Part shown: positions 11,273 through 59,993 of the stretch, piece after piece
How the letters are laid out: every line of letters begins with the position of its first letter
Numbering within the stretch: position 1 is the stretch's first letter
From: Coemansia sp. RSA 487
Taxonomy: Eukaryota; Kickxellomycota; Kickxellomycetes; Kickxellales; Kickxellaceae
Reading direction: 5' to 3'
DNA: 64,000 nt
NCBI GenBank assembly: GCA_027577595.1
Contig: JANBRJ010000068.1
Location: 28,116-92,115 of the forward strand
Notes under the pieces: model-generated
Database searches by the model: none
What the model was told of the DNA's origin: nothing
What the model saw: only the letters and a program-made list of their open reading frames with translations
Translations under genes and position numbers: made by a program

Positions 11273-11518
11273 TTATGTGATTTTTTTTGCTGGAGCCAAA
11301 ATATCCATTAAATCTCCAAGCATTGGAGTGCATGATCTATCGTCTCTGGTACCTTTCTTTGCATTTTGGATACCACACTGGTGAATGCTGCCAACAAAAC
11401 AGCGAAAGCAGCACTTGCAGATGGTTTCCATGCTGTGCCCATACCTGTTGTCATTGCATCGAAAACAACCATGCGCCAAGTGCAAGCTGGCCTGGATGGA
11501 TTTCGATCCCCTTTCCAT
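11273..11518 (-). CDS. Possible small Cys-rich protein, unconfirmed
   Basis: This 81-codon frame starts at an ATG with A at -3 (aacaaATGG) and has higher GC than the flanks. The product contains CxxC-like pairs (GCFRCND, CKCCFRC), which could bind metal, and an acidic-hydrophobic C terminus. A donor-like CAG/GTATGG and an acceptor-like GGCAG lie inside, 57 bases apart, so a spliced version without the central cysteines would stay in frame. Another minus-strand frame through the same bases is also open and hydrophobic. I do not recognise the protein; it may be spacer between GUF1 and the propeller gene. Confidence 0.22.
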   Translation of the reverse strand: MERGSKSIQASLHLAHGCFRCNDNRYGHSMETICKCCFRCFVGSIHQCGIQNAKKGTRDDRSCTPMLGDLMDILAPAKKIT

Positions 11519-11594
11519 TTGTTGTGTTTCTTCTTTTTACAGTTGTTTCAATTATCTGTTTGGGTTACATATTTGCTCACGCTATTTGGGTCCC

Positions 11595-12881
11595 ATGACA
11601 CAGTTCAAGAGAGCGCGCGTATCTGACGGCACTGATGGCACGGCATGTCAACAACATGTCCAATCGAAAGATGCATGCCGCTTTGTTGTGGAGAGAACAA
11701 TTAGGCTTCCGCAGAGCATTGGCAGAGTAGCAGCCATAGCCGCTTGGTCGATGGATCAAGCAAAGCCCAATAGTACGCCCAGTACCACCCTTACAACGAC
11801 AGAGACAACACAGAATGACCAAACATCGAAAAACAATGCCCAGAACCCGCTAGTTGCCATTGGCACAGACACCGGATGCATTGCGCTTGTACGGATGACG
11901 GATGACGATGTCACAGTCATTGACCATGGCAGCAGCGGTAATAGTAGCAACGGCAATGGAACGGCCGCGATTCAACGGATACTGATGGCCAAGAGCGCCA
12001 CAGCACCTACAGGCGCCCCTGGCATTATTATCCCATCTGCTTCTACCGCTCACTCGGCGCCCGACATGGTTGCCGGCGATGCTGACGGCCGAGTGACTGT
12101 GTTCACCCTTGGCCGGCTGTTCTCGCGCACCACGCTTTCTGCTCCCGTAAGCGCTTTGGCCGCGGACACAAACCCTCATACGCCGCATGGCTATCTTGTC
12201 GGCGACATGGGCGGCTCTGTCACCAGCTACCACACACAAGAAATGCGCTGGCGTGTGCAACTCGACCCGTATGCCGCTGAATTGACCATGTCCAATGGCC
12301 ACATAAGTGCGCTACTGGACAGGGACGATCCTCAGGTCACGGGCATATGTGCGGTCCAGTGGGCTGACGATACCGGAGTTCCGACGCGCTATGTGCTGGC
12401 AGCCACGGGAACCCAAATCCAAGTACTGTGCCATGGTACATTTGTTCTACCAGTGCACTTACGTGCGCGGTGCACAGCCCTGTGTGCAGGTTCGTTCACT
12501 GCTTCGCAGGAGGGCAGCACGCAGGCGATCGTTGGCGACGAGACTGGCTGCCTCTACGTGCTCGATAGGTTTACACTCACTCCGTATGCGCGTGTCGCCC
12601 ACCCGATTACCCGCATTTCTGTGCTTGCACACCATGCACTCTCGGCATCCGGTGGTCCGGATATTGTTGTATGCTCAACGCAATCAAACTCCGTATATCT
12701 GCTGTGCGCTGGGAAGACCATTGGCACATATGTGGCCGATGTTTGGCCCACGGATGTTGCTATCATTGAATCACTTTCAGCCGAGCGTAGATGTCCTGCG
12801 CTTGTTGTCGCAGAGACTGTTGGGCGGATGGGGACACAGGAGCACCACTGTTGGCTGAAAGTCGTTGCTATCGAGGAATAG
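11595..12881 (+). CDS. Beta-propeller protein, ITFG2/kaptin-like
   Basis: This is a 428-residue protein built from repeated four-stranded blade-like units such as PLVAIGTDTGCIALV, DMVAGDADGRVTVFTL, QAIVGDETGCLYVLD and DIVVCSTQSNSVYLL. The G-D-x-x-G-x-x-h-h pattern resembles FG-GAP/WD-type blades, and the length and blade spacing recall ITFG2 or kaptin, subunits of the KICSTOR scaffold that recruits GATOR1 to lysosomes. That match is from memory and weak, so the function is open. The frame is open from 11385, but the first 70 codons lie in T-rich leader and I prefer the ATG at 11595 (MTQFKRARV). A low-complexity insert (residues ~65-90, Ser/Thr/Asn) separates the first strands. Confidence 0.7.
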   Translation: MTQFKRARVSDGTDGTACQQHVQSKDACRFVVERTIRLPQSIGRVAAIAAWSMDQAKPNSTPSTTLTTTETTQNDQTSKNNAQNPLVAIGTDTGCIALVRMTDDDVTVIDHGSSGNSSNGNGTAAIQRILMAKSATAPTGAPGIIIPSASTAHSAPDMVAGDADGRVTVFTLGRLFSRTTLSAPVSALAADTNPHTPHGYLVGDMGGSVTSYHTQEMRWRVQLDPYAAELTMSNGHISALLDRDDPQVTGICAVQWADDTGVPTRYVLAATGTQIQVLCHGTFVLPVHLRARCTALCAGSFTASQEGSTQAIVGDETGCLYVLDRFTLTPYARVAHPITRISVLAHHALSASGGPDIVVCSTQSNSVYLLCAGKTIGTYVADVWPTDVAIIESLSAERRCPALVVAETVGRMGTQEHHCWLKVVAIEE

Positions 12882-13738: not shown

Positions 13739-15166
13739 ATGGTTCAGAGGGAAGATTACACATGGTTTAGGGCAAAGGCAGGCGAGGCTTTAGCACGACT
13801 CCTGGAGAGCGCAAAGCAGCTCGAGCAGCAGTTTCAATCGACTAGCCCTCAGGAGGTGCTTCTCCCAAGTGGATTGTCTTTTGGAAGCCAGAAAGCAACA
13901 AACGAGCAACACTTTGGGCCGCACCAGCAGCAGCAAGGAAACCAGCAACATTATCTACCAGATTTACAAGAAGCAAATAGTGGAAGCAGAGATGCAGGAG
14001 GCTGGACCAGGGCCATCACAAGGCCATGCTATCTCCATGGAATCCATAGGCGGCTAACCGAAATGCTCCAGCACCAGAAACCAATCTCGTTCGATGACAT
14101 TAGCATGGTCCAGTGTGGAGTATCTATAACGCCGCAGCGCACCATTGTTTTCCGCGGGTGCAAAGGAATTGGGAAGAGCTACCTCATGTTTCTGGCAGCC
14201 GCGCAATTATTAGTCCTAGACAGAAGCGTGCGCGTGGTTTATATCGCTGATTGTGGGGACTGGCGCCGCTGTATGGGCGCCGCTGAGCGTAGCGTATTTC
14301 TGGCAGAAGCAATTGCTGCAGCATTCGCTGATAGCATTGAAGTCCAGGAAATGGTCGATATGTGGATAGAGCAGGCGCATCACGATGCTGTTTATAGGCG
14401 CCCGCTGTTTGTATCACTCTTGCAGAGCATCGACGCGTATTGCCAGAAGAACGACCTCAAGATAGCAATGCTCCTGGACTGCATTGACAAGGTTGCTGGT
14501 CCAGAGCCAGAAAGTGAGGAGATAGTGGCAAACCTAGTGTTTATGCAGCACAGATACCAGTATGCCATGATATTGGCTGCATCTGACGACACAAAGGCGC
14601 GGGTTCTGAGCGAGAAACTAAATGCTGGTGACATGACTATCAGTAGTCCGTTTTCATCTGTCGAAGCAAGCCTATTTATCAACTCATGTGGGCTAGGGGC
14701 GCGCCTACAGGCACCCCAGCTCAAACAGATACTAAAACTTACATGGCAACATCCAGCCGAGCTCCAGCGACTATGTATCCTGATTCAAATGCAGCACAGA
14801 AGGCTCGGCAACGGTGGTCCGGATACTGCAATTTCGCTAGGCATTCAAGAGTTTTCTCTCAAGCCGTTTATCGACTTTGTGCCCAAGCCATTTGCAGCTT
14901 TTCTCTCTCAGGCGCAGACACTTGCTGGAGACTTTGCCCAGGCTGCTATCGACACTCTTAGAATGAGTAGCTACATTGGCGGACTCATAGATACAAATTA
15001 CATGGTCCTTGCGCCGATGTCACACCAGCATACCTTTATGTACCCAAGTCCACAAATAGCAAAAGGCATGGTTGAGCTGCATTGCAAGGCTCCCAACGAT
15101 ATCTATCACTCTTTAGAGCACTATTTGATACGCATGCAAATGGTGCTGTACCAGCGGTTTCTGTGA
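13739..15166 (+). CDS. P-loop NTPase of unknown function (STAND/crinkler-like shape)
   Basis: This is a 475-residue protein with a helical N terminus (residues 1-110, Gln-rich), a Walker A motif GCKGIGKSY (Gly140, Lys146, Ser147), a following strand VRVVYIADCGDW, and a Walker B-like KIAMLLDCID (Asp247/Asp250). The remainder is helical and Leu/Ile-rich without transmembrane segments. The order 'loader P-loop, VVYIxDCxxW, hhhhDxxD' recalls large lineage-specific NTPase families of zygomycetes related in shape to crinkler or RHS proteins; that link is inference. It is not ORC4, whose initiator-specific motifs are absent. It is an isolated plus-strand gene in a gene-poor stretch. The ATG at 13739 follows a pyrimidine-rich leader. 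Confidence 0.72.
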   Translation: MVQREDYTWFRAKAGEALARLLESAKQLEQQFQSTSPQEVLLPSGLSFGSQKATNEQHFGPHQQQQGNQQHYLPDLQEANSGSRDAGGWTRAITRPCYLHGIHRRLTEMLQHQKPISFDDISMVQCGVSITPQRTIVFRGCKGIGKSYLMFLAAAQLLVLDRSVRVVYIADCGDWRRCMGAAERSVFLAEAIAAAFADSIEVQEMVDMWIEQAHHDAVYRRPLFVSLLQSIDAYCQKNDLKIAMLLDCIDKVAGPEPESEEIVANLVFMQHRYQYAMILAASDDTKARVLSEKLNAGDMTISSPFSSVEASLFINSCGLGARLQAPQLKQILKLTWQHPAELQRLCILIQMQHRRLGNGGPDTAISLGIQEFSLKPFIDFVPKPFAAFLSQAQTLAGDFAQAAIDTLRMSSYIGGLIDTNYMVLAPMSHQHTFMYPSPQIAKGMVELHCKAPNDIYHSLEHYLIRMQMVLYQRFL

Positions 15167-23438: not shown

Positions 23439-25259
23439 ATGTCATTTAAATTCAACTGGGACGGGCTTCCATCCGAATTGAATGAAGAAGCACTGGACAT
23501 GCTCACACAGGCTCTGAACAAGGGCGATAACAAACCGCCCAACCTTGTCGGGCCAATAATCGCCAAAGAGCTTGACCTAGGCAGCACGCCTCCACAGCTG
23601 GATATCCTAGAGATAAGCGAGCTTGAAGAGGACAGGTTCCGGGCCATGTTCCGCATGAAGTACGAGGGCGATGGGTTTCTTGTTTTGCAGACCAAAGTCC
23701 AGGCCAACCCACTGCGACTGCCTGCCAGCGAACTGCCATCGATGCCCAGTATCGGCGTTGTTGCTGCTGCCCAGCCGCTCGTTGTCCCTATGCTCTTGCG
23801 CATCTCTGGCCTGAAATTGCACGGAATAATCGTGCTTGCGGTGTCCAAGCAGGACGGTATAACTCTTGTGTTTCGAAGCGATCCGCTTGTCTCTGTCGAG
23901 GTGCACTCGACCTTTGACTCTGTCCCGTCGGTGCGCAGTATGCTTCAGCGGGAAATCGAGGCTACGCTGAGATCGCTGTTCCAGGAGGATCTTCCAATCA
24001 TCGTCCATGAAATGAGCGTCAATGAGCTCCGTCGTGCACGCGAACTCAAGGATAGGCAGCGGAGGGAGCATATAGAGAAGCAGCAGCAGCGGATCCGCAT
24101 GAACCACGCGCAGTCTGACAGCACGGTTGGCGATATGTGGTCCCCGAGTAGAAATGGACGCACTGCAAGGTCGGATTCCGGCGCAGCATCAGTAGACTCG
24201 TTGCCGCAGTCGGTGTCGCAACACCTTATGACCACGCAGCTGCATCGCAGACTCATGGAGCTGTCCACGGAAGAGCAGATCCGCAACCACCTGGCTCGAC
24301 AGAACCAGAACTTTGGTCATGAGCAAGGCAACCCAGAGCTTTCGCGCGCTTGCTCATACGTAAACTCCTTGGCTAATTCGACATATGGCGGGAACATGGA
24401 TGACGCAGGGCTGTTTACAAATATGGGCACGGTCATTTCGGGGTCGCGGTCAAACGTGGACTGGGCACAAACGCCCCCAGAGTTCGATACGGCTTCGTTA
24501 GCGGCGCATTCGGTCTTTAGCTACGACAGCCATGGCGCCCGCACCGACTACTTTCTGCCGCCACCTCCAGCCCTAAGCAGCCACCCGAGGAGCACCACGT
24601 TTGACGAGAACCGCATGAGCGGAGACCCAGAGTCGCTGGAACAATTTCTGAGCGACGATTGGGGCCGCATGCAGCAGTCTGCAGAGCTTGACGCGTATAT
24701 CCGGCGACGCCAGGAAGAACGCGCGCTTAACGAGAAACAGAACGGCGTTATCCTGCGGTCTACAAACAATGCGGTTGCGGCGCGTTTGGCATCGCTAATG
24801 AGCATGGGGCAGACATTGTCGCCCTACACGCGGCGCTTCGAGCACACGACCATGAGATCAGATGTTGCTCCGCGGCTGAGCCAAACCCCGTATCGTGGCG
24901 CTTCGTCGCGATACATCGGAGTGAATGGCACGCAGTCGGAGACAGGAGCGCAGCCATTATCGCCTGGGAGCCCTACAGCCAGCCACGATCTCCGCAACTT
25001 TTCGTTCAGCTCGAACATGCTCCCAGTTACAGCCCAATCAGCCGCCACATCCACAACAGGGGCAGTAGCTGCTGCCGCAGCGGCTGGGACATCTGCAGGA
25101 GCATCGTTTTCGTCGACTACACCACCCCTGGGTAGTGGAGTACATTCGCCATTCTCGCGCAATCGCAAACTCCGGCGAAAGGTGCATCGCATCAATGGGC
25201 TTAGCCTCGGAAACAGTGCATCCAAGAACCCTGCGGCGTCTTCATCAACCAGCGATTGA
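23439..25259 (+). CDS. MDM34: ERMES complex subunit Mdm34
   Basis: This is a 606-residue protein. It starts with MSFKFNWDGLPSELNEEA and continues with PPNLVGPI, KELDLGSTPPQLDILEI and LVLQTKVQANPL, the hallmark N terminus of Mdm34. Residues 1 to ~200 form the SMP lipid-binding domain. Mdm34 sits in the mitochondrial outer membrane side of the ER-mitochondria encounter structure and transfers phospholipids together with Mmm1, Mdm12 and Mdm10. The rest (200-606) is disordered, Ser/Arg/Gln-rich, with an Ala-rich tract near 535 and a basic C terminus. A poly(A) signal AATAAA begins directly after the stop. Confidence 0.95.
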   Translation: MSFKFNWDGLPSELNEEALDMLTQALNKGDNKPPNLVGPIIAKELDLGSTPPQLDILEISELEEDRFRAMFRMKYEGDGFLVLQTKVQANPLRLPASELPSMPSIGVVAAAQPLVVPMLLRISGLKLHGIIVLAVSKQDGITLVFRSDPLVSVEVHSTFDSVPSVRSMLQREIEATLRSLFQEDLPIIVHEMSVNELRRARELKDRQRREHIEKQQQRIRMNHAQSDSTVGDMWSPSRNGRTARSDSGAASVDSLPQSVSQHLMTTQLHRRLMELSTEEQIRNHLARQNQNFGHEQGNPELSRACSYVNSLANSTYGGNMDDAGLFTNMGTVISGSRSNVDWAQTPPEFDTASLAAHSVFSYDSHGARTDYFLPPPPALSSHPRSTTFDENRMSGDPESLEQFLSDDWGRMQQSAELDAYIRRRQEERALNEKQNGVILRSTNNAVAARLASLMSMGQTLSPYTRRFEHTTMRSDVAPRLSQTPYRGASSRYIGVNGTQSETGAQPLSPGSPTASHDLRNFSFSSNMLPVTAQSAATSTTGAVAAAAAAGTSAGASFSSTTPPLGSGVHSPFSRNRKLRRKVHRINGLSLGNSASKNPAASSSTSD

Positions 25260-31705: not shown

Positions 31706-34700
31706 ATGTCGTACGCATCCGGAGCACAGGCTCACTTTCAGCACGGCCAACAGCAGCAGCCGCCGCCGCCGCCACCACCACCTCCTCTAGAACAGCAACA
31801 TATTTCGGCAAACGACAGATATTCTTACGGAAATGGCTCATCGTATCGTGCGCAGAACGCACCTGCAACAATGACGTACTCGGGCGACTTTTCTGGCGCA
31901 CAGGCATCACAGTCGGCACAAGGGTACCAGCAACAACAGTACTATGACAATGGACCTCCATTGCATACGCAATACCCACCGCCACCACAACCGCCGCCTG
32001 TTTCACATGGTATACAGCCGCCGCCGTTGCCGCAACAGTACCACCAGCACCAACAGCAACAACAGTACCCGCCTCCTCTTCAAGGAAGCTACACTACGTA
32101 CCCAGGCGATTCTCACTACCAGGCACAGCCCCCGCCGCCGCATGTTTCTCATTCCCATTCTCATCCCCAAGCAGTGACGCATGTGACACCCGCCCAGTAC
32201 CAATCTGTCGCTGCTGGTGCATATAGTGCTGCCGCCCCACCGCTCCTGCATCAGGCTGCAACCGTTCCAGCGATGTCGCAGCACCAGCAGCAGTACGTGT
32301 CGCCGCCCGCAAGCTACCATCAGCACCATGTGGCGGCCCCACCACCGCCAGCCAGCTATGCCAACCCAGACTCTGTACACCAGGCTCCGGCCCACCAACA
32401 CCAGCATCAGCACAACTATAGCGCTCCGCCAGTATCTGGAGCAGCATCCACAAGCGGTACATGCCCCCACCACCACCAGCAACACCAGCAGCAAAACCAG
32501 TACCCTCAGGACCAGCTTTCGTACCAGTCGCCACCACTGCAACAGGATAGCTACTACTCACAACACCAGCAGCAGCAGCAGCAGTCGCCGCCGCCGATGC
32601 CCCAGTCTCTCAGCCAGGACGGTTACCCACAGCAAGGCACTGAAAACTATAGGCTGGATGCCGGGTCGCCTAGCGCCCAAAATTACCAGCAACAGCAGCA
32701 GCTGCTGCCACCAATGCATCGTCAGCAGTCGGCCGGCTACCCAAGTACTGGGCCAGAGTACCGCCACCAACCACCAGTAGCATCTCCCGGGCCTCCCGCA
32801 TCTGGCCGGCAGTACTCAAACCCCACCATCCCGCCACAATTGGGACCGTCGCCTCTGAGCCAACCGCCATCGGCACCACTCTACGGCACACAACAGCAGC
32901 AATCACAGCTGTATCCTCCGAAGCGGCAGTCACCTCTGGATCAGTACCACCACCAATCGCCGCCTCTGAGCCAGTCGCCGATGAACAGCTACCATACACC
33001 GCCGCCACAGCCGCTGTCTCAAGCGCAAATGCAACGGCATCAGTCGCTACGTGTGGCGACCACACAGACAAATGACTCCACCATGCATGGAGGAATGCGG
33101 CCTGTGGTGAGCGCACGCGCGGACTCCCGGAACAGCTACATTGAGCACAGGCAGTCGTTTGGGACAACGCCCATTTCGGCTGTTCTCGGCTCGGAGCCTG
33201 TCATTGCTCAAGCACCGCCACCGGCGGGCAGTGGCGTTGTTCGCCGCGAATCGTCCTCGGGCTACAGCCCCAATACGTATAGCGCGCACGGCAGGGATTC
33301 GTTCTCTGCGTCGCCGGGTAACCACCAGGGAACAGGGGCGGCAGTGGCATCCTTGGTCAACTCGATGGGCGCCATGTCTGTTGGCGGTCAGTCGCATCAC
33401 CTCCCTCCGAGATCGGCGACAGCAGCATCTGGTGGGTCGTTTGCGCTTCCCGCATCGCTGGCAGCTTCGTCGCTAACCATCCCTTCGCAATTCCAGGCGT
33501 CGCAGGCCACTCTTTCGCCGCAGTCTGGCGGCCAGCCGCCACTAGCACCACCAGTGCGCAGCACGTACTCAGGAGTCAATAACCTAGGGAGTATCGGTAG
33601 CCACAGCACGCTGGTCGGATCTACGGTTCCTGTAGGCGTCGGCCTTGTTCGCAACAACAGCACGCAGAAGCAGCTAGCCGTCGTGCAAAGCAGCATCGCA
33701 GGGATTCCATCCCCAACCCAGCAGCAGCAGCAGCAGCGCACGCCGCCGACGTTTGCGCAAACGGGCGAGAACATGGCGTACCCGCTGTGGAACAACATCA
33801 GCGCCACCGCGTTCCAAGCGTACAGACACCAGATCCCGGTGCAGCAATCGAACCTGAGCGGCACAAAGTACGCGCTAATAATCGGTAGCAACTACTATGG
33901 TAAAGAGTACTCGCAGACATCGAACATCAACTGGGCACATACGCTAAAGTCGCTTTTGGTCAGCCGGTACGGGTACAAGGAGAAGAACGTGGTCCTGTTG
34001 AGCGACGACCAGCCTGACCCCCGGTGCCATCCGACGCACCATCTGATAGCAACGCACATGAAGCGCATGATGCGCGATGTCCGTCCCAACGACTCGGTCT
34101 TCTTCTACTTTTGCGGCTTTGGCCGGCTCCCGATGCAGCTGGCTGAAGAGCACACGGATGCGCTGTCAAGCATCAGGCGGCTGCGCGAGGACTTTATCTT
34201 GCCCTGCGACTTTGAGGACCACGGCGCTATCAGTTCGTCGTACTTGCACAAGCACTTGGTCGGCCATCTCCCGCGCTCCGCGCGTCTTACTGCGCTTTTC
34301 AACTGCATTGTCAACGACACGGGGCTGGGCGTGCCGTACAAGTACATCCACAGCAATGGCCGCGCCGTGCTGACCAGTGCGATTGCTGGGAACAACCTGT
34401 TTGAGGCCGGAATGAAGCTCGGCCATGCGCCGTTGTCGGTCACTGGAAGCTTTGGCGACCTGACGCAGAGATTCGAGACATCGCTCATGCAGCAGCAGCA
34501 ACAGGCAGCTGGCGGTGGTGGTGGTGGCGGCGGCGGGAAGACGGACCGCGAGACCGACGAGATGGACCGCATCAGACAGTCGTCGGGCGACATCATCGTG
34601 TTCGGGTGGGACCGCAACTACACAGACCCCAGGTACAAAAAGTACATGGCACAGACGCCGAGCAACATGCTGTGCTCGTACTGGGCGGCGGCAATGGAAG

Positions 34701-34837
34701 ACACACAGCGCACAAAGGGCCGTGTCACGTTCGGCGACGTGCTGGGCTCGCTGCAGAACAAGACCAAAGACATTGCGATGATGCCGTTTGTTGCGTCGGG
34801 CCGCAAGATTAGCATGGACGAGGAGTTTAGCATCTGA
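31706..34837 (+). CDS. Metacaspase-fold protein with catalytic residues lost
   Basis: This is a 1043-residue protein. Residues 1-718 are a Gln/Pro/His/Ser-rich prodomain with poly-Q, poly-P and polyhistidine-like runs, as in yeast Mca1 but much longer. Residues 719-1043 follow the type-I metacaspase p20/p10 order: GTKYALIIGSNYYG, DSVFFYFCGFGR, DFILPCDFEDHGAIS, RLTALFNCIVNDTGLGVPY. The usual SGHG is CGFG, so the catalytic His position is Phe805. The usual DSCHSG aligns with NCIVND, so the catalytic Cys position is Ile868, with a Cys one residue earlier. The conserved acidic pair after the first loop is also gone. A Gln/Gly insert lies near 932-950. The reading frame is intact and conserved in fold, so a non-proteolytic role is likely. 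The ATG at 31706 follows a pyrimidine-rich leader. Confidence 0.85.
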   Translation: MSYASGAQAHFQHGQQQQPPPPPPPPPLEQQHISANDRYSYGNGSSYRAQNAPATMTYSGDFSGAQASQSAQGYQQQQYYDNGPPLHTQYPPPPQPPPVSHGIQPPPLPQQYHQHQQQQQYPPPLQGSYTTYPGDSHYQAQPPPPHVSHSHSHPQAVTHVTPAQYQSVAAGAYSAAAPPLLHQAATVPAMSQHQQQYVSPPASYHQHHVAAPPPPASYANPDSVHQAPAHQHQHQHNYSAPPVSGAASTSGTCPHHHQQHQQQNQYPQDQLSYQSPPLQQDSYYSQHQQQQQQSPPPMPQSLSQDGYPQQGTENYRLDAGSPSAQNYQQQQQLLPPMHRQQSAGYPSTGPEYRHQPPVASPGPPASGRQYSNPTIPPQLGPSPLSQPPSAPLYGTQQQQSQLYPPKRQSPLDQYHHQSPPLSQSPMNSYHTPPPQPLSQAQMQRHQSLRVATTQTNDSTMHGGMRPVVSARADSRNSYIEHRQSFGTTPISAVLGSEPVIAQAPPPAGSGVVRRESSSGYSPNTYSAHGRDSFSASPGNHQGTGAAVASLVNSMGAMSVGGQSHHLPPRSATAASGGSFALPASLAASSLTIPSQFQASQATLSPQSGGQPPLAPPVRSTYSGVNNLGSIGSHSTLVGSTVPVGVGLVRNNSTQKQLAVVQSSIAGIPSPTQQQQQQRTPPTFAQTGENMAYPLWNNISATAFQAYRHQIPVQQSNLSGTKYALIIGSNYYGKEYSQTSNINWAHTLKSLLVSRYGYKEKNVVLLSDDQPDPRCHPTHHLIATHMKRMMRDVRPNDSVFFYFCGFGRLPMQLAEEHTDALSSIRRLREDFILPCDFEDHGAISSSYLHKHLVGHLPRSARLTALFNCIVNDTGLGVPYKYIHSNGRAVLTSAIAGNNLFEAGMKLGHAPLSVTGSFGDLTQRFETSLMQQQQQAAGGGGGGGGGKTDRETDEMDRIRQSSGDIIVFGWDRNYTDPRYKKYMAQTPSNMLCSYWAAAMEDTQRTKGRVTFGDVLGSLQNKTKDIAMMPFVASGRKISMDEEFSI

Positions 34838-35384: not shown

Positions 35385-36605
35385 ATGAAGACGCTTCTTA
35401 GCATCGTTACGCTGGGGCTGCTGATGGCAGCAAGCTCGCAAGTGTCTGCCAAAGGGCACACCATAGCGCTGAAGAAGGTGGACGAAACGCCGGAAGCCAC
35501 GCTGCAGCGCTATGCTAACACGGGCGGGTACATTGCGCAAAAGTACTTTGGCGCAAGTACCATCGACCAGCTGGACGCTTTGCAGGACCAGATTCTGCCT
35601 TTGAACGCCGACGGTAGCGCATCCTACGGTGTGCCAATCTCGAACTTTATGAACGCGCAATACTACGGCGAGATAGATATCGGCACGCCGGCGCAGACGT
35701 TCAAGGTTGTGTTCGACACGGGGTCGTCCAATCTGTGGGTGCCATCAACCGAGTGCTCGTCCATCGCATGCTTCTTCCACACCAAGTACGACCATTCGCA
35801 GAGCTCGTCGTACAAGGCTAACGGTACAGACTTTGCCATCCGCTATGGGTCCGGGTCGCTCGAAGGGTACCTGAGCCAGGATTCGCTCAGCGTTGGTGGC
35901 ATCAATATAGAGGGCCAGCAGTTTGCAGAGGCTACCAAGGAGCCGGGGCTGACGTTTGCGTTTGGCAGGTTTGACGGTATCCTGGGTCTCGGGTACGACA
36001 CCATCTCGGTCCTGGGCGTGGTGCCACCGTTCTACCACATGGTCAACAAGGGCCTCGTCGACGACCCGATGTTTGCGTTCTACTTGTCGGACACGAACAA
36101 GGGAGGCGATGACGGCGAAATGACGCTGGGCGGATACAACAAGGACAAGTTCGAGGGCGAGCTGCAGTGGGCCAAGGTTCGCCGCAAGGGATACTGGGAG
36201 GTGGACCTGGAGAAGGTGCGCTTCGGCGACGACGAAATCCAAATGGATAACGTCGGGGCGGCCATCGACACCGGAAGCTCGCTGCTTGTGCTGCCGACGA
36301 CGCTGGCTGACCTTGTGAACAAGAAGATTGGCGCCAAGAAGAACTTTGCTGGGCAGTACACGGTCGAATGCAGCACGGTCCCGTCGTTGCCGCCATTTTC
36401 GCTGCAGTTTGGCGGCAAGGAGTATCTTCTGGATGCCGAGGACTACGTGCTGAATGTTCAGGGCCAGTGCATCTCAGGTTTCATGGGCATGGATATCCCT
36501 GAGCCTCTCGGCCCCATCTGGATCATTGGTGACGTCTTCCTCCGCAAGTTCTACACCGTCTACGACCTGGGCAAGAACCGCGTCGGCTTTGCAAAGGCCC
36601 GCTAG
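35385..36605 (+). CDS. PEP4: Vacuolar aspartic proteinase (saccharopepsin type)
   Basis: This is a 406-residue pepsin-family zymogen. Signal peptide ~1-22 (MKTLLSIVTLGLLMAASSQV), propeptide to ~85, then the mature enzyme with VVFDTGSSNLWVP (catalytic Asp111), the flap RYGSGS (Tyr154), and AIDTGSSLLVLPT (catalytic Asp295). The C terminus ends with WIIGDVFLRKFYTVYDLGKN. The close match of LGEIDIGTPxQxFxVVFDTG-type sequence and the absence of a GPI tail favour vacuolar proteinase A, which activates other vacuolar hydrolases, over secreted or yapsin types. NGT near residue 146 is a glycosylation site. A poly(A) signal follows at 36658. Confidence 0.93.
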   Translation: MKTLLSIVTLGLLMAASSQVSAKGHTIALKKVDETPEATLQRYANTGGYIAQKYFGASTIDQLDALQDQILPLNADGSASYGVPISNFMNAQYYGEIDIGTPAQTFKVVFDTGSSNLWVPSTECSSIACFFHTKYDHSQSSSYKANGTDFAIRYGSGSLEGYLSQDSLSVGGINIEGQQFAEATKEPGLTFAFGRFDGILGLGYDTISVLGVVPPFYHMVNKGLVDDPMFAFYLSDTNKGGDDGEMTLGGYNKDKFEGELQWAKVRRKGYWEVDLEKVRFGDDEIQMDNVGAAIDTGSSLLVLPTTLADLVNKKIGAKKNFAGQYTVECSTVPSLPPFSLQFGGKEYLLDAEDYVLNVQGQCISGFMGMDIPEPLGPIWIIGDVFLRKFYTVYDLGKNRVGFAKAR

Positions 36606-38514: not shown

Positions 38515-41500
38515 CTAGATCTCCACTGCTTCACGCCGCCCTGGAGTCGACGCTGCGCTGCGGGGCGCTACAGGTGATATCGTTGGCGTTGACTCGCTGA
38601 CAGCATTGCTGCTGCCACCAATACCAAGGTACCGGCGTCCGCCAGTGGGCGTCGACGATGCCGGGCGGTACAGATCGACAGCCCCGCTGTCTGCATCCCT
38701 GCGCACATCAACAAGCGACCGTGTCTCCTCCACAGCAGTTGCCGCGCCATTCAGTCCGCCGTCCTCGCCAAGCCCCGTCCACAGATATGGCTTGAATGTC
38801 GACGACGAAAAGTCTATCGATCCCGCACACCCGGCGCTCAGCGTCGTCATCGCTTCCAGATCAACGTCCATGCTGTCACCGCCACCGTCCTTGTTGCTGC
38901 CCGCCCCTGCTGCCTTTACCTGCTGGTACTGTTGCGACGATGCTGTGTGGCCCGCCAGACCAAAATCCAGAGGCTCGTCGTGCAGCCGGAAGCTGGACAG
39001 CAGCCCCGACGAAGCATCCGTCAACGCACCCATTGCTTCCTGGGTGAGCTGCGTGCCCGAGAGTGTCCGCGCATGCCGTGTGCCACCGCTATTGGCCCCG
39101 CTTGCACCCAATCCAGCGGAGCCTATACCAAGCGAACCAAACATTGATGCCGCTTGCTGGCTCTGCTGCTGCGGTATATCTTGCTGGTAATCTCTCGTGG
39201 CTTCAGACACATGCGGAAACTGCATCAGCTGAGCTGCTGTTGCTTCAGATACCGCTGGCAGCGTCTGCATGGTTCCGTTTCCAGCACCGCCAATCCGCTG
39301 CTGCTGCTGCTGTTGCTGCTGCCCGCCTCCAACGCCGACCATCGTCCCATGACCACCACCAACACCACCGTAGTTCTGGTTGCTAATTGTCCGGCTGCGG
39401 CGGACTCGCGTCGCTCTGCTATCAACAGGCTTAAGTGTTCCGCTGCTAGGCCTGGGTGGATACCCATTCGTGCCATTTCTTTCACCCGTTAGCATATGCT
39501 GTGGGTAATGGCGTGTCTGCAAATTAAGCGCATGGATACTAGAACCGCCAGATCCGTTCGACGGTGGAATAGCTGGAACACGGTTCAGCAAGCTGTTTCC
39601 AAAGTTCGACGTTGCTACGCCCTCCATCAGCGATGACGGCACATGCATGGTCCGGCGACGCGAATGCGCATTGTCAGAACTGCTCCCCCCAGCCACAGCA
39701 GCATCAGCCGCTACAGCTCTTGCTTCGGATCCCGTGCTCAGAGATAGGCTGCGTGCGCCTGCCGCCGGAGCTCTCTGGTCGCTGGATTCGGAACCATCGC
39801 CCAGCGCCACTGCAACGGCCGCTGCAGCGGCTGCTGCCGCTTCTGCAATACCGGCTCCATCCTGGCTCGCCGTGTTGTAAACAGTGCCCTGGCTTGCGCC
39901 CATGGCACTGCGGATGTCAGTATTGCTACTATTGTTATGTAGGGCGGTTGTCTGCAGACCGAGGATATCGCCGCTGCCTGGAGGATATGCAAAACTCGGG
40001 TATATAGGCATTGAGGGTCGCCGATAGGACGCATTTGCCGTGCTTTGGCCGATTCCAAAGGGATTAAGCGATGTAATTGAGCTGGTGTCGGGTGCTGCTG
40101 CCTGTGCCGCTGCTGCAGCGGCAGTGATGTTCGCTGCGTCAAGCGTTGCTGCCAACGATGGCGTCAACCCATACCAGTCAAACTGGCTACGCCGGCGAGC
40201 ATGCGTCATGCCGTTCCCAGATACTGTAGCATTGCTATCGCTGCCGCCGCCAACTCCTGAGCTTCCGTCTGCAACGTGATCCCCGTTCGCTGACGTGCCC
40301 ATCGTCGCTGACGTGCCAATGCTGGCGTTGAGCATGTTCGGATCAATAGAATCGCCACTAATATGGTGGCCAGCACTATCGTTCAGATTCCATCCCAAGT
40401 TCGATGACGCAAAGCTTGGGAACCACTGGCTAAAATGCGTCAGCGCCTCGAGATCGACAGGCGTGTCTCCGCTGGACGTGGTACTCAGCCCAATGCTATT
40501 GTCATCAGCAACGCCGTTGGCTCGAAGCAGCCGCTGTGCAGAACGTAGCTGGCTACGATGCCCCATCAGAAGGTCGCCACGGATATCGCCCATTGCTCCG
40601 TTCATAGTGGCTGATGCAGAAAGTGACGGCTCTGCAGTGGCTGATGTGGTTGAAAGCTTGTACCCAAGGTCTGTAGATACGCTAATATCATTATGCGCCC
40701 CCGCTGCCATTGCATCAGCTGTAGTGGCTTGTATTCCTGTCTGAGCGCTAGTTATTCCAGCCCCTGTTATACCGGAGCTGTTCTGTGTTGACATATCCGC
40801 TGCCACTGCCGCCGCCGCCGCCGCCGCTGCTGCTGCTGCCACATTTTCGTCGGGGAGCCGTGGAAACAGGAAAGCATCTGGGTTGATCTGCCCATCAACT
40901 GTCATTCTCCTGATTGTGTCTGCTGTGCTACCAAGGTGCATATCCGTACTGTTAGATACGTCTGCAGCTGAGTGACCCAGCCCAGCAACCGAAGTATTGA
41001 AATATCCCATTGACGACGAAAAGTTTGTGCGATCGATCCCAGCTGCCATTGCTGCTGCTGCTGCCATTGCATCGTTTATGTCCGCCTGGACAGAGTGTCT
41101 CCGCTTGGTCGACTGAGTAGGCGTCGAGTATCCGCTAGCAACCCTCCCTTCGAGAGCCAACGCATCAAGATGGTCGGTTGGTGTAGCCGCTCCAATAGGA
41201 CGCGAAAACACTGAAGGCGCAAACGATTCAAGCAAAAAGTTGCGGTGGTTTTGGGCGCCAAACGAACTAGCAGAAATAGTGCCTGGCCGTCGCTGCTCAG
41301 AGTCAGAAAGTGCGCTAAACTCACCGATATGCACGCCCCTGTCGTTGGCTCCATGAGCAGGTGCCGAATGGATTCCACCATCGTTTTGAGCTACTGTGGT
41401 AGCATAGCCCGTGCTTGCCTCGTACTCAAGACCTACCGAGCCAAGCACCGGGTCTCTGTTTGACGCCAGAGCTATAGCCGCTTGATCTTCGCCAACAGCC

Positions 41501-43881
41501 GTGGCAGCCTTTGACCGTGAACGTCCTCGCTTTTGCGTAGTGCTCTTTCTGCGGCCACCTGTCTTTTTAGACTTGCTGCTAGCTTCATCACCAGCTTCTG
41601 TCAACGAGGCAGTAGCCCTGCGATTCTTGCTTTTGCCGACATTGTCTACGTTGCTGGCACGAGCGACGCCACCTGCAGTTGAACGCCGTTTTGGGGTGCG
41701 CGATTTGCTAGAGCCAGGCGGTGCATAGCTAACAGACATTGCACTTAGTCCTGAGTCATCATCTTCAGCTTCTGCACTATCATCTTCAGGCGAAGCTTTA
41801 CCATTGCCGTCGGCATCTGCGTCATAGCTGGGATCAACGTCGTTTTCAGGGATCGGATGCGGATCAAGCGAGTCATTTCTCTGGTGAAGAATAGCCATGA
41901 TCTTATCGCGGATATGGTCTGGTATATCGCCATCAAGCCGCTTACTGGCCGTAGGTGCCTTGCGCTTTGGTGTCAGGTTCTTGGATTGCGTCGGCGGCGG
42001 ACCAGGAGTAGTGTGGCGCTCACGGTCGGCACGCTCCTTGTTAGGGATGACATATCCAAACATTTCGAATACCTCGGGAAATGCATTGCGCAGCCGATCA
42101 CGCAGCGATTGGCCTGGTCTGTTTTCAAGCTGCAGATCAGGGTCCGCAGCTATCTTCGTCCAGTGGTTTGCATGGCGCATAACACCGATCAACAAACGAC
42201 GGTCTTCATCGTTTGTGTAATTGCGCGTGGGCTTGCGTTGAACACGGTGAAGACCCTGCAAACGCTGGGAGTTTGGTGGAAGAGGCCATACAACATCGGG
42301 CTCCTTCCCGCTGCTTTTACGGTTGTTCTTTTTATTCGGACCGTGCGCGCATTCCTGAGCGCGGATAGTGCGAAACCGATCTTTCAGATCAACAGATGTA
42401 CGGCTGTTAAAGATAAAGCTTGGGTCGTCCAAGATCTTTTTCCACGCACCAACACCATATTTGCTGCATCCTTGCAACAGATTCTCTGTTTCTTCATCGG
42501 TCCATTTACGCGCTGCGCGCCGCACTTCCGAAAGGGTGGCAAGTTTCGACTGGTCTGAAGCATGGCTGGACTTTCGCTTAGCTGGAGTCTGGAACGGGGA
42601 GTCGCTACTGCCATTCTTGCGTTTACGTTTCGACGTACTCGTGAGCCCTGGTGGCGCTATGGCTGATCCAGATTTCGCTGCGCCTGACACAGAATTCTCG
42701 TGATGTGGCAGCGCTGAATACTGGTCGCTCTGCAGCATAATGTGATCCTGATGAATCACAGAGGCCGTAAGATGGCCGATTTGCCCAGTGCTCGAACCAA
42801 ACGACTGCGGGCCAAACTGGGATTGTTGATGGCCCTGCGTTTCAACTCCTGACGACGACGACGATGACAACAGCGCAGAGTTCGAGTCGGTTGTCGTTGC
42901 AGCAATGTGCTGCAGCGCCTGCGCAAGATCGCGGTATGCTGCATTGGATAAAGACGGATCATAATGCGCTGGAAACCCCGACTGGCCATTGCTTGAACCG
43001 CCAGTTACATTGTTAAACCCATGATTGATCCCGGACAAGGTCAGCGGGTTTGCAGAAAGCAGTTCGCTGTGAGCCAAATATGCGCTATTTTCCACATTCT
43101 GTTGGCGGTTCCGGTTGTGGTGGGAGCTGCTACCGTCATGGCCAATGTGCCCGTGGTAGCTGTGTGTGCTGTTGCTGCTGTTGTTATTATGGTGAGCGGT
43201 CACAGTTGGGTTCGCAGTCGAAGACGATTCTGCCACGTATGCGGCAGCACTGTTCAGCAGAGCGAGAAAGCCCATGTCTGGACGACGCTGTGCGGATGAG
43301 TCAAAGGAGCCTGGGAGAGGAGCCGATCCCTCCCGAGCGTTTGCATCGAATGTTGAGTGGCTCTGGCGTGGGGTAGAGGTCGAGCTTTGGATCTTTGTAG
43401 CAGACGTCTGAACAGGCTTCCATAAGTTGGATACCTCAGCGACTGAAGCAGACGCGGATCCAACAGCTTCGGAGCTGGCAGAAACTCCGGTGCGGTCCTG
43501 CAGTGCAGCAAGGACACGGGCGGCAGCGGCTGCAGAATCGCCCATGGATGAGGACGACTCGGAGGACCTGCTGTTGCCTGTTACCTCAGAATCGGTGGAC
43601 TGGCCGCTGGAATCGTTGGCTTTTCTTGGGCGCATCTGAAGCGTGTCTGAAACAGTTGTTGACTCGGTCGAAGTTGAAGAAGCAGGTGTGGCCGGAGCAA
43701 ACAGCCCTTGGTGAGATAAGGCGTCGGAGACTGCTGCGATGGGGTTGTTCGATGTGGTAGAGTAGTAGGCGATAAACTTGTCTACGAGATCAGACCCAGG
43801 GCAGACTTCCGCTGCTATTGCCGATTCTTCTACGTGGTGTATTCTGGGTATATCTGTTTCGAGGCCTTTGCTTGTTGTCAT
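38515..43881 (-). CDS. Large Tay1/Teb1-type double-Myb (telobox) protein
   Basis: This is a 1788-residue protein with two Myb domains. The first (~456-508) is RKWTDEETENLLQGCSKYGV followed by GAWKKILDD and the telobox-like VDLKDRFRTI. The second (~550-605) is NYTNDEDRRLLIGVMRHANH with ENRPGQSLRDRLRNAFPE. This tandem arrangement with a VDLKDRFR helix is that of Yarrowia Tay1, Ustilago Tay1 and fission-yeast Teb1, which bind double-stranded TTAGGG-type telomeric DNA or act as transcription factors. The rest is low-complexity Ser/Asn/Gly/Ala with basic AT-hook-like patches (~690-770). Teb1 and Tay1 are far shorter. The ATG at 43881 is the first in this frame; an unusual leader precedes it. Confidence 0.82.
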   Translation of the reverse strand: MTTSKGLETDIPRIHHVEESAIAAEVCPGSDLVDKFIAYYSTTSNNPIAAVSDALSHQGLFAPATPASSTSTESTTVSDTLQMRPRKANDSSGQSTDSEVTGNSRSSESSSSMGDSAAAAARVLAALQDRTGVSASSEAVGSASASVAEVSNLWKPVQTSATKIQSSTSTPRQSHSTFDANAREGSAPLPGSFDSSAQRRPDMGFLALLNSAAAYVAESSSTANPTVTAHHNNNSSNSTHSYHGHIGHDGSSSHHNRNRQQNVENSAYLAHSELLSANPLTLSGINHGFNNVTGGSSNGQSGFPAHYDPSLSNAAYRDLAQALQHIAATTTDSNSALLSSSSSSGVETQGHQQSQFGPQSFGSSTGQIGHLTASVIHQDHIMLQSDQYSALPHHENSVSGAAKSGSAIAPPGLTSTSKRKRKNGSSDSPFQTPAKRKSSHASDQSKLATLSEVRRAARKWTDEETENLLQGCSKYGVGAWKKILDDPSFIFNSRTSVDLKDRFRTIRAQECAHGPNKKNNRKSSGKEPDVVWPLPPNSQRLQGLHRVQRKPTRNYTNDEDRRLLIGVMRHANHWTKIAADPDLQLENRPGQSLRDRLRNAFPEVFEMFGYVIPNKERADRERHTTPGPPPTQSKNLTPKRKAPTASKRLDGDIPDHIRDKIMAILHQRNDSLDPHPIPENDVDPSYDADADGNGKASPEDDSAEAEDDDSGLSAMSVSYAPPGSSKSRTPKRRSTAGGVARASNVDNVGKSKNRRATASLTEAGDEASSKSKKTGGRRKSTTQKRGRSRSKAATAVGEDQAAIALASNRDPVLGSVGLEYEASTGYATTVAQNDGGIHSAPAHGANDRGVHIGEFSALSDSEQRRPGTISASSFGAQNHRNFLLESFAPSVFSRPIGAATPTDHLDALALEGRVASGYSTPTQSTKRRHSVQADINDAMAAAAAMAAGIDRTNFSSSMGYFNTSVAGLGHSAADVSNSTDMHLGSTADTIRRMTVDGQINPDAFLFPRLPDENVAAAAAAAAAAAVAADMSTQNSSGITGAGITSAQTGIQATTADAMAAGAHNDISVSTDLGYKLSTTSATAEPSLSASATMNGAMGDIRGDLLMGHRSQLRSAQRLLRANGVADDNSIGLSTTSSGDTPVDLEALTHFSQWFPSFASSNLGWNLNDSAGHHISGDSIDPNMLNASIGTSATMGTSANGDHVADGSSGVGGGSDSNATVSGNGMTHARRRSQFDWYGLTPSLAATLDAANITAAAAAAQAAAPDTSSITSLNPFGIGQSTANASYRRPSMPIYPSFAYPPGSGDILGLQTTALHNNSSNTDIRSAMGASQGTVYNTASQDGAGIAEAAAAAAAAVAVALGDGSESSDQRAPAAGARSLSLSTGSEARAVAADAAVAGGSSSDNAHSRRRTMHVPSSLMEGVATSNFGNSLLNRVPAIPPSNGSGGSSIHALNLQTRHYPQHMLTGERNGTNGYPPRPSSGTLKPVDSRATRVRRSRTISNQNYGGVGGGHGTMVGVGGGQQQQQQQQRIGGAGNGTMQTLPAVSEATAAQLMQFPHVSEATRDYQQDIPQQQSQQAASMFGSLGIGSAGLGASGANSGGTRHARTLSGTQLTQEAMGALTDASSGLLSSFRLHDEPLDFGLAGHTASSQQYQQVKAAGAGSNKDGGGDSMDVDLEAMTTLSAGCAGSIDFSSSTFKPYLWTGLGEDGGLNGAATAVEETRSLVDVRRDADSGAVDLYRPASSTPTGGRRYLGIGGSSNAVSESTPTISPVAPRSAASTPGRREAVEI

Positions 43882-57791: not shown

Positions 57792-58430
57792 TTGTATTGA
57801 TCTCTATCTGTTTGCAATTCACAAGTGTATCATTAATTAAGAGTAAGCTAAAGACAAAGGAAAGAAGAGTGGAACCGACATTTGCAAACTAAAATCGATT
57901 GCCAAAGTAGCAGTGCTTTTATTTTTCGTTTTTTTTTATTTTTCAAGATGCAAAAAAGCGGTGATTAGATTAACGAGATTCACTAATCTGTCAAAAAGCT
58001 CAGAACAGAGCCCCAGCATCAAATCTCACTCCTACTTGGTCCAATTATCCATTGCATTAACGTAAAGACCGTGCACAAAAAGCATAGCCCCCATCCTCTA
58101 TATTATATGCGTTGTAGGATTTGTAAATCAGATGGCCAAACGCCAAATAAAATGTGGCATCTCTTTCTACCAACCTTTCTTGGCTTGTGCTCTGGCTGTC
58201 TTTTTGCAGCAGAAAGAGAAACAAGCTTTGGCGGTATACATTAACTGTTTCTTTTGAGCCAGGCTATTTTTGTTCTAAGCGTGCAGCTTTAGGCATAAAT
58301 CTTGATGAGAAAGGTAAAAATACGCTTTCCACTAAATCTTTTTCTTTCTTAATCTGTTCATTATATTTCTCATTTTCTAACTCCTGTTTATCTGTTGTTC
58401 GTTTATATTTCAAACTATCAATATTCCAGA
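57792..58430. promoter_or_regulatory. Divergent promoter region, RRP3 / LRR-like gene
   Basis: This AT-rich spacer holds both promoters. The final ~110 bases before 58431 are T-rich on the plus strand. Confidence 0.45.
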
Positions 58431-59993
58431 ATGAGTGCAAAAAAGCAAAGATTGTCAAAGGGTGTTCGAGAGACTGTATCCCAGACAAAGAATGGCCTGA
58501 GTACCTTCTGGAAGAGCATGGCTGTTGGTCTACGCATACTTAGGAGATACCAGTTCGAACCGTCTATTCATGAAGACAATACGATTAAAGTAGCATGCAA
58601 TTCGGTTAGCGAGACCCTTAATGGTGACGGTGCAAGTCAAGCTGATGCGGCTGCTGTAGCTGACACAAGGATAGTGACTACTATTCGTCTACATGCAAAT
58701 ATAAAACCACCAGCAAGCGAGACTACTGATCGAACGCTTGAATTGCACGTTATATTCTATGATAGACCTGTGCAAAACATATCTGCAACTATTGAAATGC
58801 TGAAAAGGCTTGATTCTGCCTTAGGAAAAGTCAAGTACTTAAACATGTTTATTTTTCCTGCTGTTGAGGATATGGAGGGCACAGATGAACAGATGGTATC
58901 TGATGTAGCCGAGCTAGAAATCCTTGCCAAGAAGCTCGTGGAGCTTGTCCCAAACGTACGCTACATTAGATGTACTGGCCCGGCAATGGGGATTGTTTCC
59001 ACGGCGTTCCAACATAATGTGATTAGTTTGCTCTCCTCGCAGCTGTATCAACTTCGTTGCAGCTCCAGCTATATTTCTCATCTGCAATGTTTCTCAAAGC
59101 AGCTTCTGTCACTAAAATTGTGCAATGATGGCATGTACCAAACCCAACCACTGCAAATACGCGCAGATAGGCTAAGACATTTGGCTGTGTACAATCTGGA
59201 CGCTGACTTTAACTGGAGAATCTTTGAAAGCAGCGACAAGCCAGGGTATATCGATTTCTGCAATATCAGGCATCTGCATCTTAACCCTAACAGCTTCTTT
59301 GAGCTAAATGGATATTTGAAAAAGTTTGTTCATGTTGGGCCAACGGATATGTTTTCATATAGAATCAATGCACCCAATCTGGCTCACCTGTGCATAAAAC
59401 TTAATCCATTGGTGTTTTCAATATTGTCTAATGCAAAACTTCCGGGAACTTTGCGGATGCTAACCATCAAAGACAACAATGGCTTGATATTCCATCTACA
59501 ACATGCCAACACTAAGAGACTAGTAAACGATGTGTTTTCAAAGTTTACCGAGCTTGGCGATGACAACATGGAGTATTATGACGTTATAAACAATTTGTTT
59601 GGTAAGCACAAAATTGCAAAGAGTATAGAATGCGTCGTCAAAAGGCAATTAAGGTATGTTGACTTTAAGGATATAGAGAAACTGTATATTACATCATTGG
59701 ACTTGCGTGTGCCAATCCTATATACTGATTTTCTAGCCCTGATTTCTCGTATACCCACATTGGTGGATGTAATCGCACACAAAGTTATATTCTCGACGGA
59801 TACTAAAGGCGCAGTTACTTTGTCAGAGCTGGAAAGAGAAACAAAAAACTATTCTAGGCTGTTACCGAAGAGCATTAGCCACATGCATTTGGCGACTGCA
59901 GATGGGCAGCATGCCGATGAAAAGACATGCGAGTATCTATCAGATTTTATGCATAAGAGCACCAAGGCACTCAGTTACTTTAAGCTTGTTTGA
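58431..59993 (+). CDS. Leucine-rich protein of unknown function
   Basis: This is a 520-residue protein. Leu/Ile/His-rich segments recur every 25-45 residues (LSSQLYQLRCSSSYISHLQC, LRHLAVYNLD, FCNIRHLHLNPNSF, NAPNLAHLCIKLNPLVFS), like irregular leucine-rich repeats. No F-box is visible at the N terminus, which is basic (SAKKQRLSKG). The C terminus (SISHMHLATADGQHADEKTC) is unusual. I cannot assign a function. The composition is more AT-rich than neighbouring genes, which suggests a different history or weak expression. I start at the ATG of 58431; the frame continues upstream only with TTG. Confidence 0.7.
   Translation: MSAKKQRLSKGVRETVSQTKNGLSTFWKSMAVGLRILRRYQFEPSIHEDNTIKVACNSVSETLNGDGASQADAAAVADTRIVTTIRLHANIKPPASETTDRTLELHVIFYDRPVQNISATIEMLKRLDSALGKVKYLNMFIFPAVEDMEGTDEQMVSDVAELEILAKKLVELVPNVRYIRCTGPAMGIVSTAFQHNVISLLSSQLYQLRCSSSYISHLQCFSKQLLSLKLCNDGMYQTQPLQIRADRLRHLAVYNLDADFNWRIFESSDKPGYIDFCNIRHLHLNPNSFFELNGYLKKFVHVGPTDMFSYRINAPNLAHLCIKLNPLVFSILSNAKLPGTLRMLTIKDNNGLIFHLQHANTKRLVNDVFSKFTELGDDNMEYYDVINNLFGKHKIAKSIECVVKRQLRYVDFKDIEKLYITSLDLRVPILYTDFLALISRIPTLVDVIAHKVIFSTDTKGAVTLSELERETKNYSRLLPKSISHMHLATADGQHADEKTCEYLSDFMHKSTKALSYFKLV

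What the first reader, a model, noticed from the sequence alone, without database searches (positions are those of the whole stretch)
33860..34837. Metacaspase fold without catalytic His or Cys: likely pseudoprotease
The C-terminal domain follows the type-I metacaspase order closely, so alignment is unambiguous. SGHG became CGFG (Phe805), and DSCHSG became NCIVND (Ile868 at the Cys position). The acidic residues after the first catalytic loop are also replaced. The frame is intact over 1043 codons, with a 718-residue QP-rich prodomain. An intact but dead caspase-like protein suggests a regulatory or aggregate-handling role, comparable with inactive trypanosome MCA4. Cys867 next to the lost Cys is a weak alternative nucleophile, but the His is gone.
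Basis: partly seen in the sequence, partly recalled or inferred. Interest (0 to 1): 0.85.

Follow-up and report, generated by a model that had tools for sequence, protein, structure and literature searches.

The report
Conserved dead metacaspase in Kickxellaceae fungi
A fungal gene encodes a caspase-like protein whose cutting machinery has been erased but whose predicted shape is kept in related species, so it probably works by binding other proteins rather than by cutting them.

The parts
31706..34837 (+). Complete coding sequence, 1043 aa, pseudo-metacaspase
   Evidence: the N-terminus MSYASG resembles MSYAPG of homologues P0005 and P0006, which supports this ATG; the database model P0001 (988 aa) starts at residue 56
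31706..33781 (+). Q/P/S-rich prodomain, residues 1-692 (Q 16.2%, P 15.3%, S 13.4% over residues 1-686)
   Evidence: composition; poorly alignable between species
33344..33385 (+). Conserved short motif VASLVNSMGAMSVG, residues 547-560
   Evidence: pattern in 26 of 28 dead proteins tested, 0 of 117 active
33782..34834 (+). Metacaspase-fold domain (p20 then p10), residues 693-1043
33923..33934 (+). Former S1-pocket segment: Asn740 for Cys92 (also a proposed second reactive Cys of type I metacaspases), Trp743 for Asp95 (T. brucei MCA2 numbering)
   Evidence: site roles from passages of PMC4357240 and PMC6341073
34112..34123 (+). CGFG, residues 803-806, in place of SGHG: Ser156 to Cys803, catalytic His158 to Phe805
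34187..34192 (+). Former calcium ligands: Glu828 (Asp189), Asp829 (Asp190 position, acid kept)
   Evidence: ligands from passages of PMC9622860
34301..34318 (+). NCIVND, residues 866-871, in place of D-C/S-C-H-S: Asp211 to Asn866, catalytic Cys213 to Ile868
34328..34330 (+). Gly875 in place of calcium ligand Asp220
34490..34537 (+). Poly-Q/poly-G stretch in the p20-p10 linker (residues 929-944), partly in a low-confidence part of the model

Best explanation
The gene is an old paralogue of the ordinary fungal type I metacaspase that lost proteolysis and was kept for a binding function in Kickxellaceae. Shown: the predicted fold is kept; His, Cys, the four S1-pocket residues and most of the calcium site are gone; the loss is shared by a single clade spanning four named genera; an intact metacaspase persists beside it. 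Inferred: the dead domain works as a protein-binding module on a long flexible Q/P-rich tether, and the conserved prodomain motif is a second docking site, so that the protein scaffolds or tunes other proteins (possibly the active metacaspase or its proteostasis partners) without cutting.
Against: No activity, expression, partner or localisation data. No DNA of relatives could be read, so constraint is inferred from proteins, without dN/dS. Homologues come from a protein database, so broken copies in other species would not have been seen. The family diverges about twice as fast as the active partner (45 of 45 species pairs, median ratio 1.97), which fits weaker constraint as well as new function. 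Cys803 (30 of 31), Cys867 (29 of 30) and His708 (31 of 31) are conserved, so a new chemistry is not excluded. Foldseek's TM-score on the model's length is only 0.59-0.61 for the best matches, since the disordered linker and N-terminus do not align. The motif pattern was written after seeing the motif and the proteins are related.
Confidence: 0.7

Rival explanations
1. A FLIP-like direct regulator (a special case of the scaffold): the dead protein binds the active metacaspase of the same cell and inhibits or times its activation, or is its processed substrate, as T. brucei MCA4 is by MCA3.
For: One dead and one active gene in this genome; I could pair both by organism name in 9 further species or strains. 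Precedents: MCA4 is processed by an active metacaspase (passage of PMC6426788); Chlamydomonas CrMCA-II forms dimers, and its self-interaction and interaction with a catalytically dead mutant were assayed (abstract and passages of PMC10896300).
Against: Metacaspases are described as active monomers (passage of PMC4357240), so a dimer-style mechanism is not given. Whether the dead domain's surface can pair with the active one was not testable here.
Confidence: 0.22
2. A still working hydrolase with a rebuilt site, using Cys867 or Cys803 with His708 or another base.
For: Cys803 30 of 31, Cys867 29 of 30, His708 31 of 31 conserved.
Against: Cys867 is Ser in P0014 and Cys803 is Ser in P0030; the Cys867 column is Cys in 50 of 119 ordinary enzymes, next to their own catalytic Cys; the catalytic Cys, the His and the second reactive Cys position (Asn740 in 31 of 31) are all lost. 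His708 lies in the N-terminal lead-in; its distance to the site could not be measured because model coordinates were not readable.
Confidence: 0.04
3. A decaying gene under relaxed constraint, not yet broken here, with no present function.
For: About twofold faster divergence than the active partner; long stem; freely varying prodomain. Broken copies elsewhere would be invisible in a protein database.
Against: The window's frame is intact over 1043 codons; the domain is still about 43-89% identical between species, with fixed family-specific residues and a motif shared from Linderina to Coemansia. Neutral decay over that span would not be expected to keep these.
Confidence: 0.06

Closest known systems
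Trypanosoma brucei metacaspase 4 (MCA4), a pseudopeptidase
   Same: Metacaspase homologue that lost both dyad residues and is kept beside active paralogues (passages of PMC6426788, and PMC10269628; the primary paper PMC3220528 was not held)
   Different: MCA4 carries Tyr and Ser at the dyad; here Phe/Leu and Ile/Val/Arg, with the S1 pocket and most of the calcium site also gone; different lineage; long Q/P-rich prodomain here. Whether MCA4 keeps its pocket was not compared.
Bacterial pseudo-orthocaspases
   Same: Caspase-fold proteins lacking the dyad, most often Tyr/Ser (abstract start and passages of PMC6426788)
   Different: Prokaryotic, without a p10 domain; not compared by sequence here
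Human c-FLIP(L) pseudo-caspase
   Different: FLIP has death-effector domains and acts in animal apoptosis (recalled); nothing here shows pairing with the active paralogue
Yeast Mca1/Yca1 and Candida glabrata MCA-I
   Different: Both have the dyad; CgMCA-I is calcium-dependent (abstract); in yeast a catalytically inactive Mca1 raises aggregation
Chlamydomonas CrMCA-II
   Same: A metacaspase with a function that does not need proteolysis (abstract of PMC10896300)
   Different: Active type II enzyme with its dyad intact

Membership tests
Type I metacaspase (active, C14B) | Caspase-hemoglobinase fold, p20 then p10, N-terminal prodomain | tested here: met
Type I metacaspase (active, C14B) | His-Cys catalytic dyad | tested here: not met
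   Phe805, Ile868; absent in 31 of 31 and 30 of 30 covered family members
Type I metacaspase (active, C14B) | S1 pocket residues (Cys92, Asp95, Ser156, Asp211 of MCA2) | tested here: not met
   Asn740, Trp743, Cys803, Asn866 in the window
Type I metacaspase (active, C14B) | Calcium-site aspartates (Asp189, Asp190, Asp220 of MCA2; Asp173 not mapped) | tested here: not met
   Glu828, Asp829, Gly875 in the window: an acid is kept at two positions, Asp220 is lost. Across the family the Asp189 position is mostly Ser, Ala or Cys. Calcium binding itself was not measured
Pfam PF00656 Peptidase_C14 | Profile match | tested here: not met
   No match at E<=0.01 for the full window protein, and none at this locus in the six-frame search; 22 of the 31 homologues carry a precomputed PF00656 label
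Pseudo-metacaspase (descriptive group) | Homologous metacaspase fold with dyad lost, gene intact and conserved in relatives | tested here: met
Pseudo-metacaspase (descriptive group) | Absence of peptidase activity in an assay | not testable with these tools
   needs purified protein
FLIP-like regulator | Physical pairing with the active paralogue | not testable with these tools
   only single chains could be modelled

The most novel reading that the evidence does not exclude
Kickxellaceae turned one metacaspase copy into a dedicated non-proteolytic hub: the remodelled former active site (Asn740, Cys803, Asn866, Cys867) and a new prodomain docking motif bind specific partners and control the active metacaspase or condensates, a fungal counterpart of c-FLIP that arose independently of trypanosome MCA4.
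Probability: 0.2. Interest if true: 0.72.

Novelty: new variant of a known kind. Interest (0 to 1): 0.52.

Why it matters
Roles of metacaspases that do not need proteolysis have been probed with engineered dead mutants (for example CrMCA-II). Here evolution made a dead version and kept it next to an intact one in several species, so the two can be deleted separately to ask what the fold does without cutting. It also flags misleading names: 26 of the 31 database homologues are called Ca(2+)-dependent cysteine protease, although the cysteine is replaced wherever the site is covered and most of the calcium site is gone.

Tried and rejected
Sequencing or assembly error: rejected, since proteins from other genomes share the substitutions. 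A shifted alignment hiding another His/Cys pair: rejected at sequence level by flanking residues fixed at 90% or more in both groups (Gly804, Gly806, Phe865, Pro877). Cys867 as nucleophile: rejected (ancestral; Ser in P0014).

Where the duplication happened: not resolved. The single clade of dead genes is firm, but AU tests rejected none of three placements: dead clade outside the Kickxellomycotina actives (p 0.547), with Kickxellales actives (p 0.455), with Kickxellaceae actives without Spiromyces and Mycoemilia (p 0.358); grouping with Harpellales, as in the free tree, had support 59/72. The tree used 63 of 151 aligned sequences (20 of 32 dead, 43 of 119 active).

Breadth: queried with dead members, found dead members only in Coemansia, Kickxella, Linderina, Dipsacomyces and one unnamed metagenome protein. 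(mixed profile) scored 7997 candidates, listed 120 of 2516, and did not list known members such as P0018 and P0029, so absence from Smittium, Spiromyces, Mycoemilia or other fungi is not shown. The 119 ordinary metacaspases are that listing (118) plus the own paralogue, not a random sample.

dN/dS could not be computed (no DNA of relatives), and model coordinates could not be read. Dropped before counts: P0001 (the window's own protein) and P0032 (a metagenome protein with two C14-like stretches, E 1.1e-12). Partial rows P0020, P0025, P0031, P0070 were kept, their gaps counted as gaps. In one search, P0022, P0023 and P0027 had no anchor and were left out (P0023 and P0027 show the motif); P0070 was not tried; P0028 and P0030 lacked the motif (67 and 77 residues before the anchor); 2 of 119 active proteins had no anchor.

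Full report
What is there. The window lies in a 17.8 Mb, 184-contig genome (C68:28116-92115). The protein's closest named relatives are Coemansia, so the source is very probably a Kickxellaceae fungus (inference). The ORF 31706-34837 (+) is one uninterrupted frame of 1043 codons ending in TGA. Residues 1-692 are Q/P/S-rich; residues 693-1043 are a metacaspase-like domain. By sequence the domain matches yeast Mca1 (E 1.3e-22) and T. brucei MCA2 (E 9.6e-16) in the PDB, although the full protein has no Pfam hit at E<=0.01. Neighbours look like ordinary cellular genes: an anticodon-binding-domain protein with a weak LSM match (LSM12-like, a recalled name) and an ATP10 protein upstream, an aspartic protease and a SURF4 protein downstream.

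The active site. CGFG sits at 803-806 and NCIVND at 866-871. In an alignment of 151 sequences (32 of this family, 119 others) the His column is H in 119 of 119 others and F in 29, L in 2 of 31 covered family members; the Cys column is C in 119 of 119 others and I in 24, V in 5, R in 1 of 30. The S1-pocket residues named for MCA2 (Cys92, Asp95, Ser156, Asp211; passage of PMC4357240) are Asn740, Trp743, Cys803 and Asn866 in the window. The calcium ligands (passages of PMC9622860) Asp189 and Asp220 are Glu828 and Gly875, while the Asp190 position keeps an acid; Asp173 lies in a loop I did not map. Scoring eight of these residues, 116 of 119 others keep eight and 3 keep seven; in the family 27 of 32 keep none (three of them partial), 4 keep one, and the Dipsacomyces protein keeps three. 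The Cys92 position, where a second reactive cysteine has been suggested for type I metacaspases (Cys176 of yeast Yca1 in PMC6341073, passage; I mapped it through the chain alignment), is Asn in 31 of 31 covered family members. Cys867 falls in a column that is Cys in 50 and Ser in 69 of the 119 others, so it is an inherited neighbour of the nucleophile.

Related species. Two searches with dead members found 30 homologues, leaving out the window's own protein and one distant C14 protein; a third added P0070. Thirty of the 31 are named, from Coemansia, Kickxella, Linderina and Dipsacomyces; NCBI taxonomy puts Linderina and Dipsacomyces in Kickxellaceae (Coemansia and Kickxella not looked up). Twenty-six of the 31 are named Ca(2+)-dependent cysteine protease in the listings, which the missing residues contradict. 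The own genome holds one intact metacaspase (L001, SGHG and DCCHS); a search with the dead domain found these two loci and three weak matches with E of 0.012 to 0.18 that I did not follow.

History. In a tree of 63 sequences the 20 dead ones form one clade with 100/100 support on a stem of 3.56 changes per site; no branch inside the clade exceeds 0.76. Dipsacomyces, the least eroded member, branches first, with moderate support for the next fork (88/67). The place of the clade among Kickxellomycotina is open, and so long a stem makes any placement uncertain. After the stem the family settled: 39 positions are at least 90% fixed to the same residue in both groups and 25 to different residues. 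Across 45 pairs made from ten species or strains holding both genes (paired by me from the names; one active protein partial), the dead domain was more diverged in 45 of 45, with a median ratio of 1.97. That is constrained, but less so than the enzyme. Because all relatives come from a protein database, frame-broken copies elsewhere would not have been seen.

A new motif. The prodomain is hard to align, but one short stretch stands out: in the window VASLVNSMGAMS, in Linderina VAMLSNSLGAMA. A pattern written from it occurs in 26 of 28 dead prodomains tested, in 3 of 28000 shuffled ones, and in 0 of 117 active proteins. The pattern is post hoc and the rows are related, so this is a description rather than a test; still, the same stretch is kept in otherwise unalignable sequence across genera. 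It was not seen in P0028 and P0030, whose prodomains are short.

How it may work. Shown: no canonical catalytic apparatus, retained predicted fold, shared loss, active paralogue kept. Inferred: a binding role of the dead domain, with the prodomain motif as a docking site. A polyglutamine-rich region ties yeast Mca1 to aggregates (passage of PMC13304501); the disordered prodomain and loop of Arabidopsis MC1 govern stress-granule behaviour, and a catalytically inactive version still forms normal granules (passages of PMC10473220); CrMCA-II protects from heat without proteolysis (abstract of PMC10896300). On the other side, catalytically inactive yeast Mca1 lets aggregates build up and MC1 clearance of an aggregated test protein needs catalysis, so aggregate clearance by this protein alone is not the natural expectation. 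I put most weight on a scaffold, less on direct control of the active metacaspase.

Comparison and novelty. Pseudo-metacaspases are known: T. brucei MCA4, with Tyr and Ser at the dyad, and bacterial pseudo-orthocaspases (passages of PMC6426788); that paper describes caspase-homologue pseudo-proteases as seemingly restricted to prokaryotic orthocaspases while citing MCA4. I found no paper holding both metacaspase and Coemansia. The searches for inactive, pseudo- and pseudoenzyme metacaspases listed no title or abstract start that describes a fungal family of this kind, nor did the passages I saw in the fungal reviews. These cover only the open library held, some listings were cut (20 of 21, 15 of 35, 8 of 9, 10 of 28, 12 of 34), and I read passages, not whole texts. 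I therefore call it a new variant of a known kind: an apparently independent, fungal, more thoroughly erased pseudo-metacaspase.

Noticed in passing
window 33344-33385: Conserved prodomain motif around LVNSMGAMS, not found in the active proteins tested; binding partner unknown.
   Followed up: partly
window 31706-34837: The database model of this protein (P0001, 988 aa) starts at residue 56; homologue N-termini suggest the upstream ATG at 31706 is the start.
   Followed up: partly
window 35385-36605: Aspartic protease (PF00026, E 2.5e-107) directly downstream on the same strand; a functional link was not examined.
   Followed up: no
window 38515-43881: 1788-residue frame on the minus strand with only Myb-like and CHD1/Hrp3 HTH domain matches in Pfam.
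   Followed up: no
window 11385-12881, 13739-15166, 23439-25259, 58395-59993: Four frames of 475-606 aa without a Pfam match at E<=0.001.
   Followed up: no
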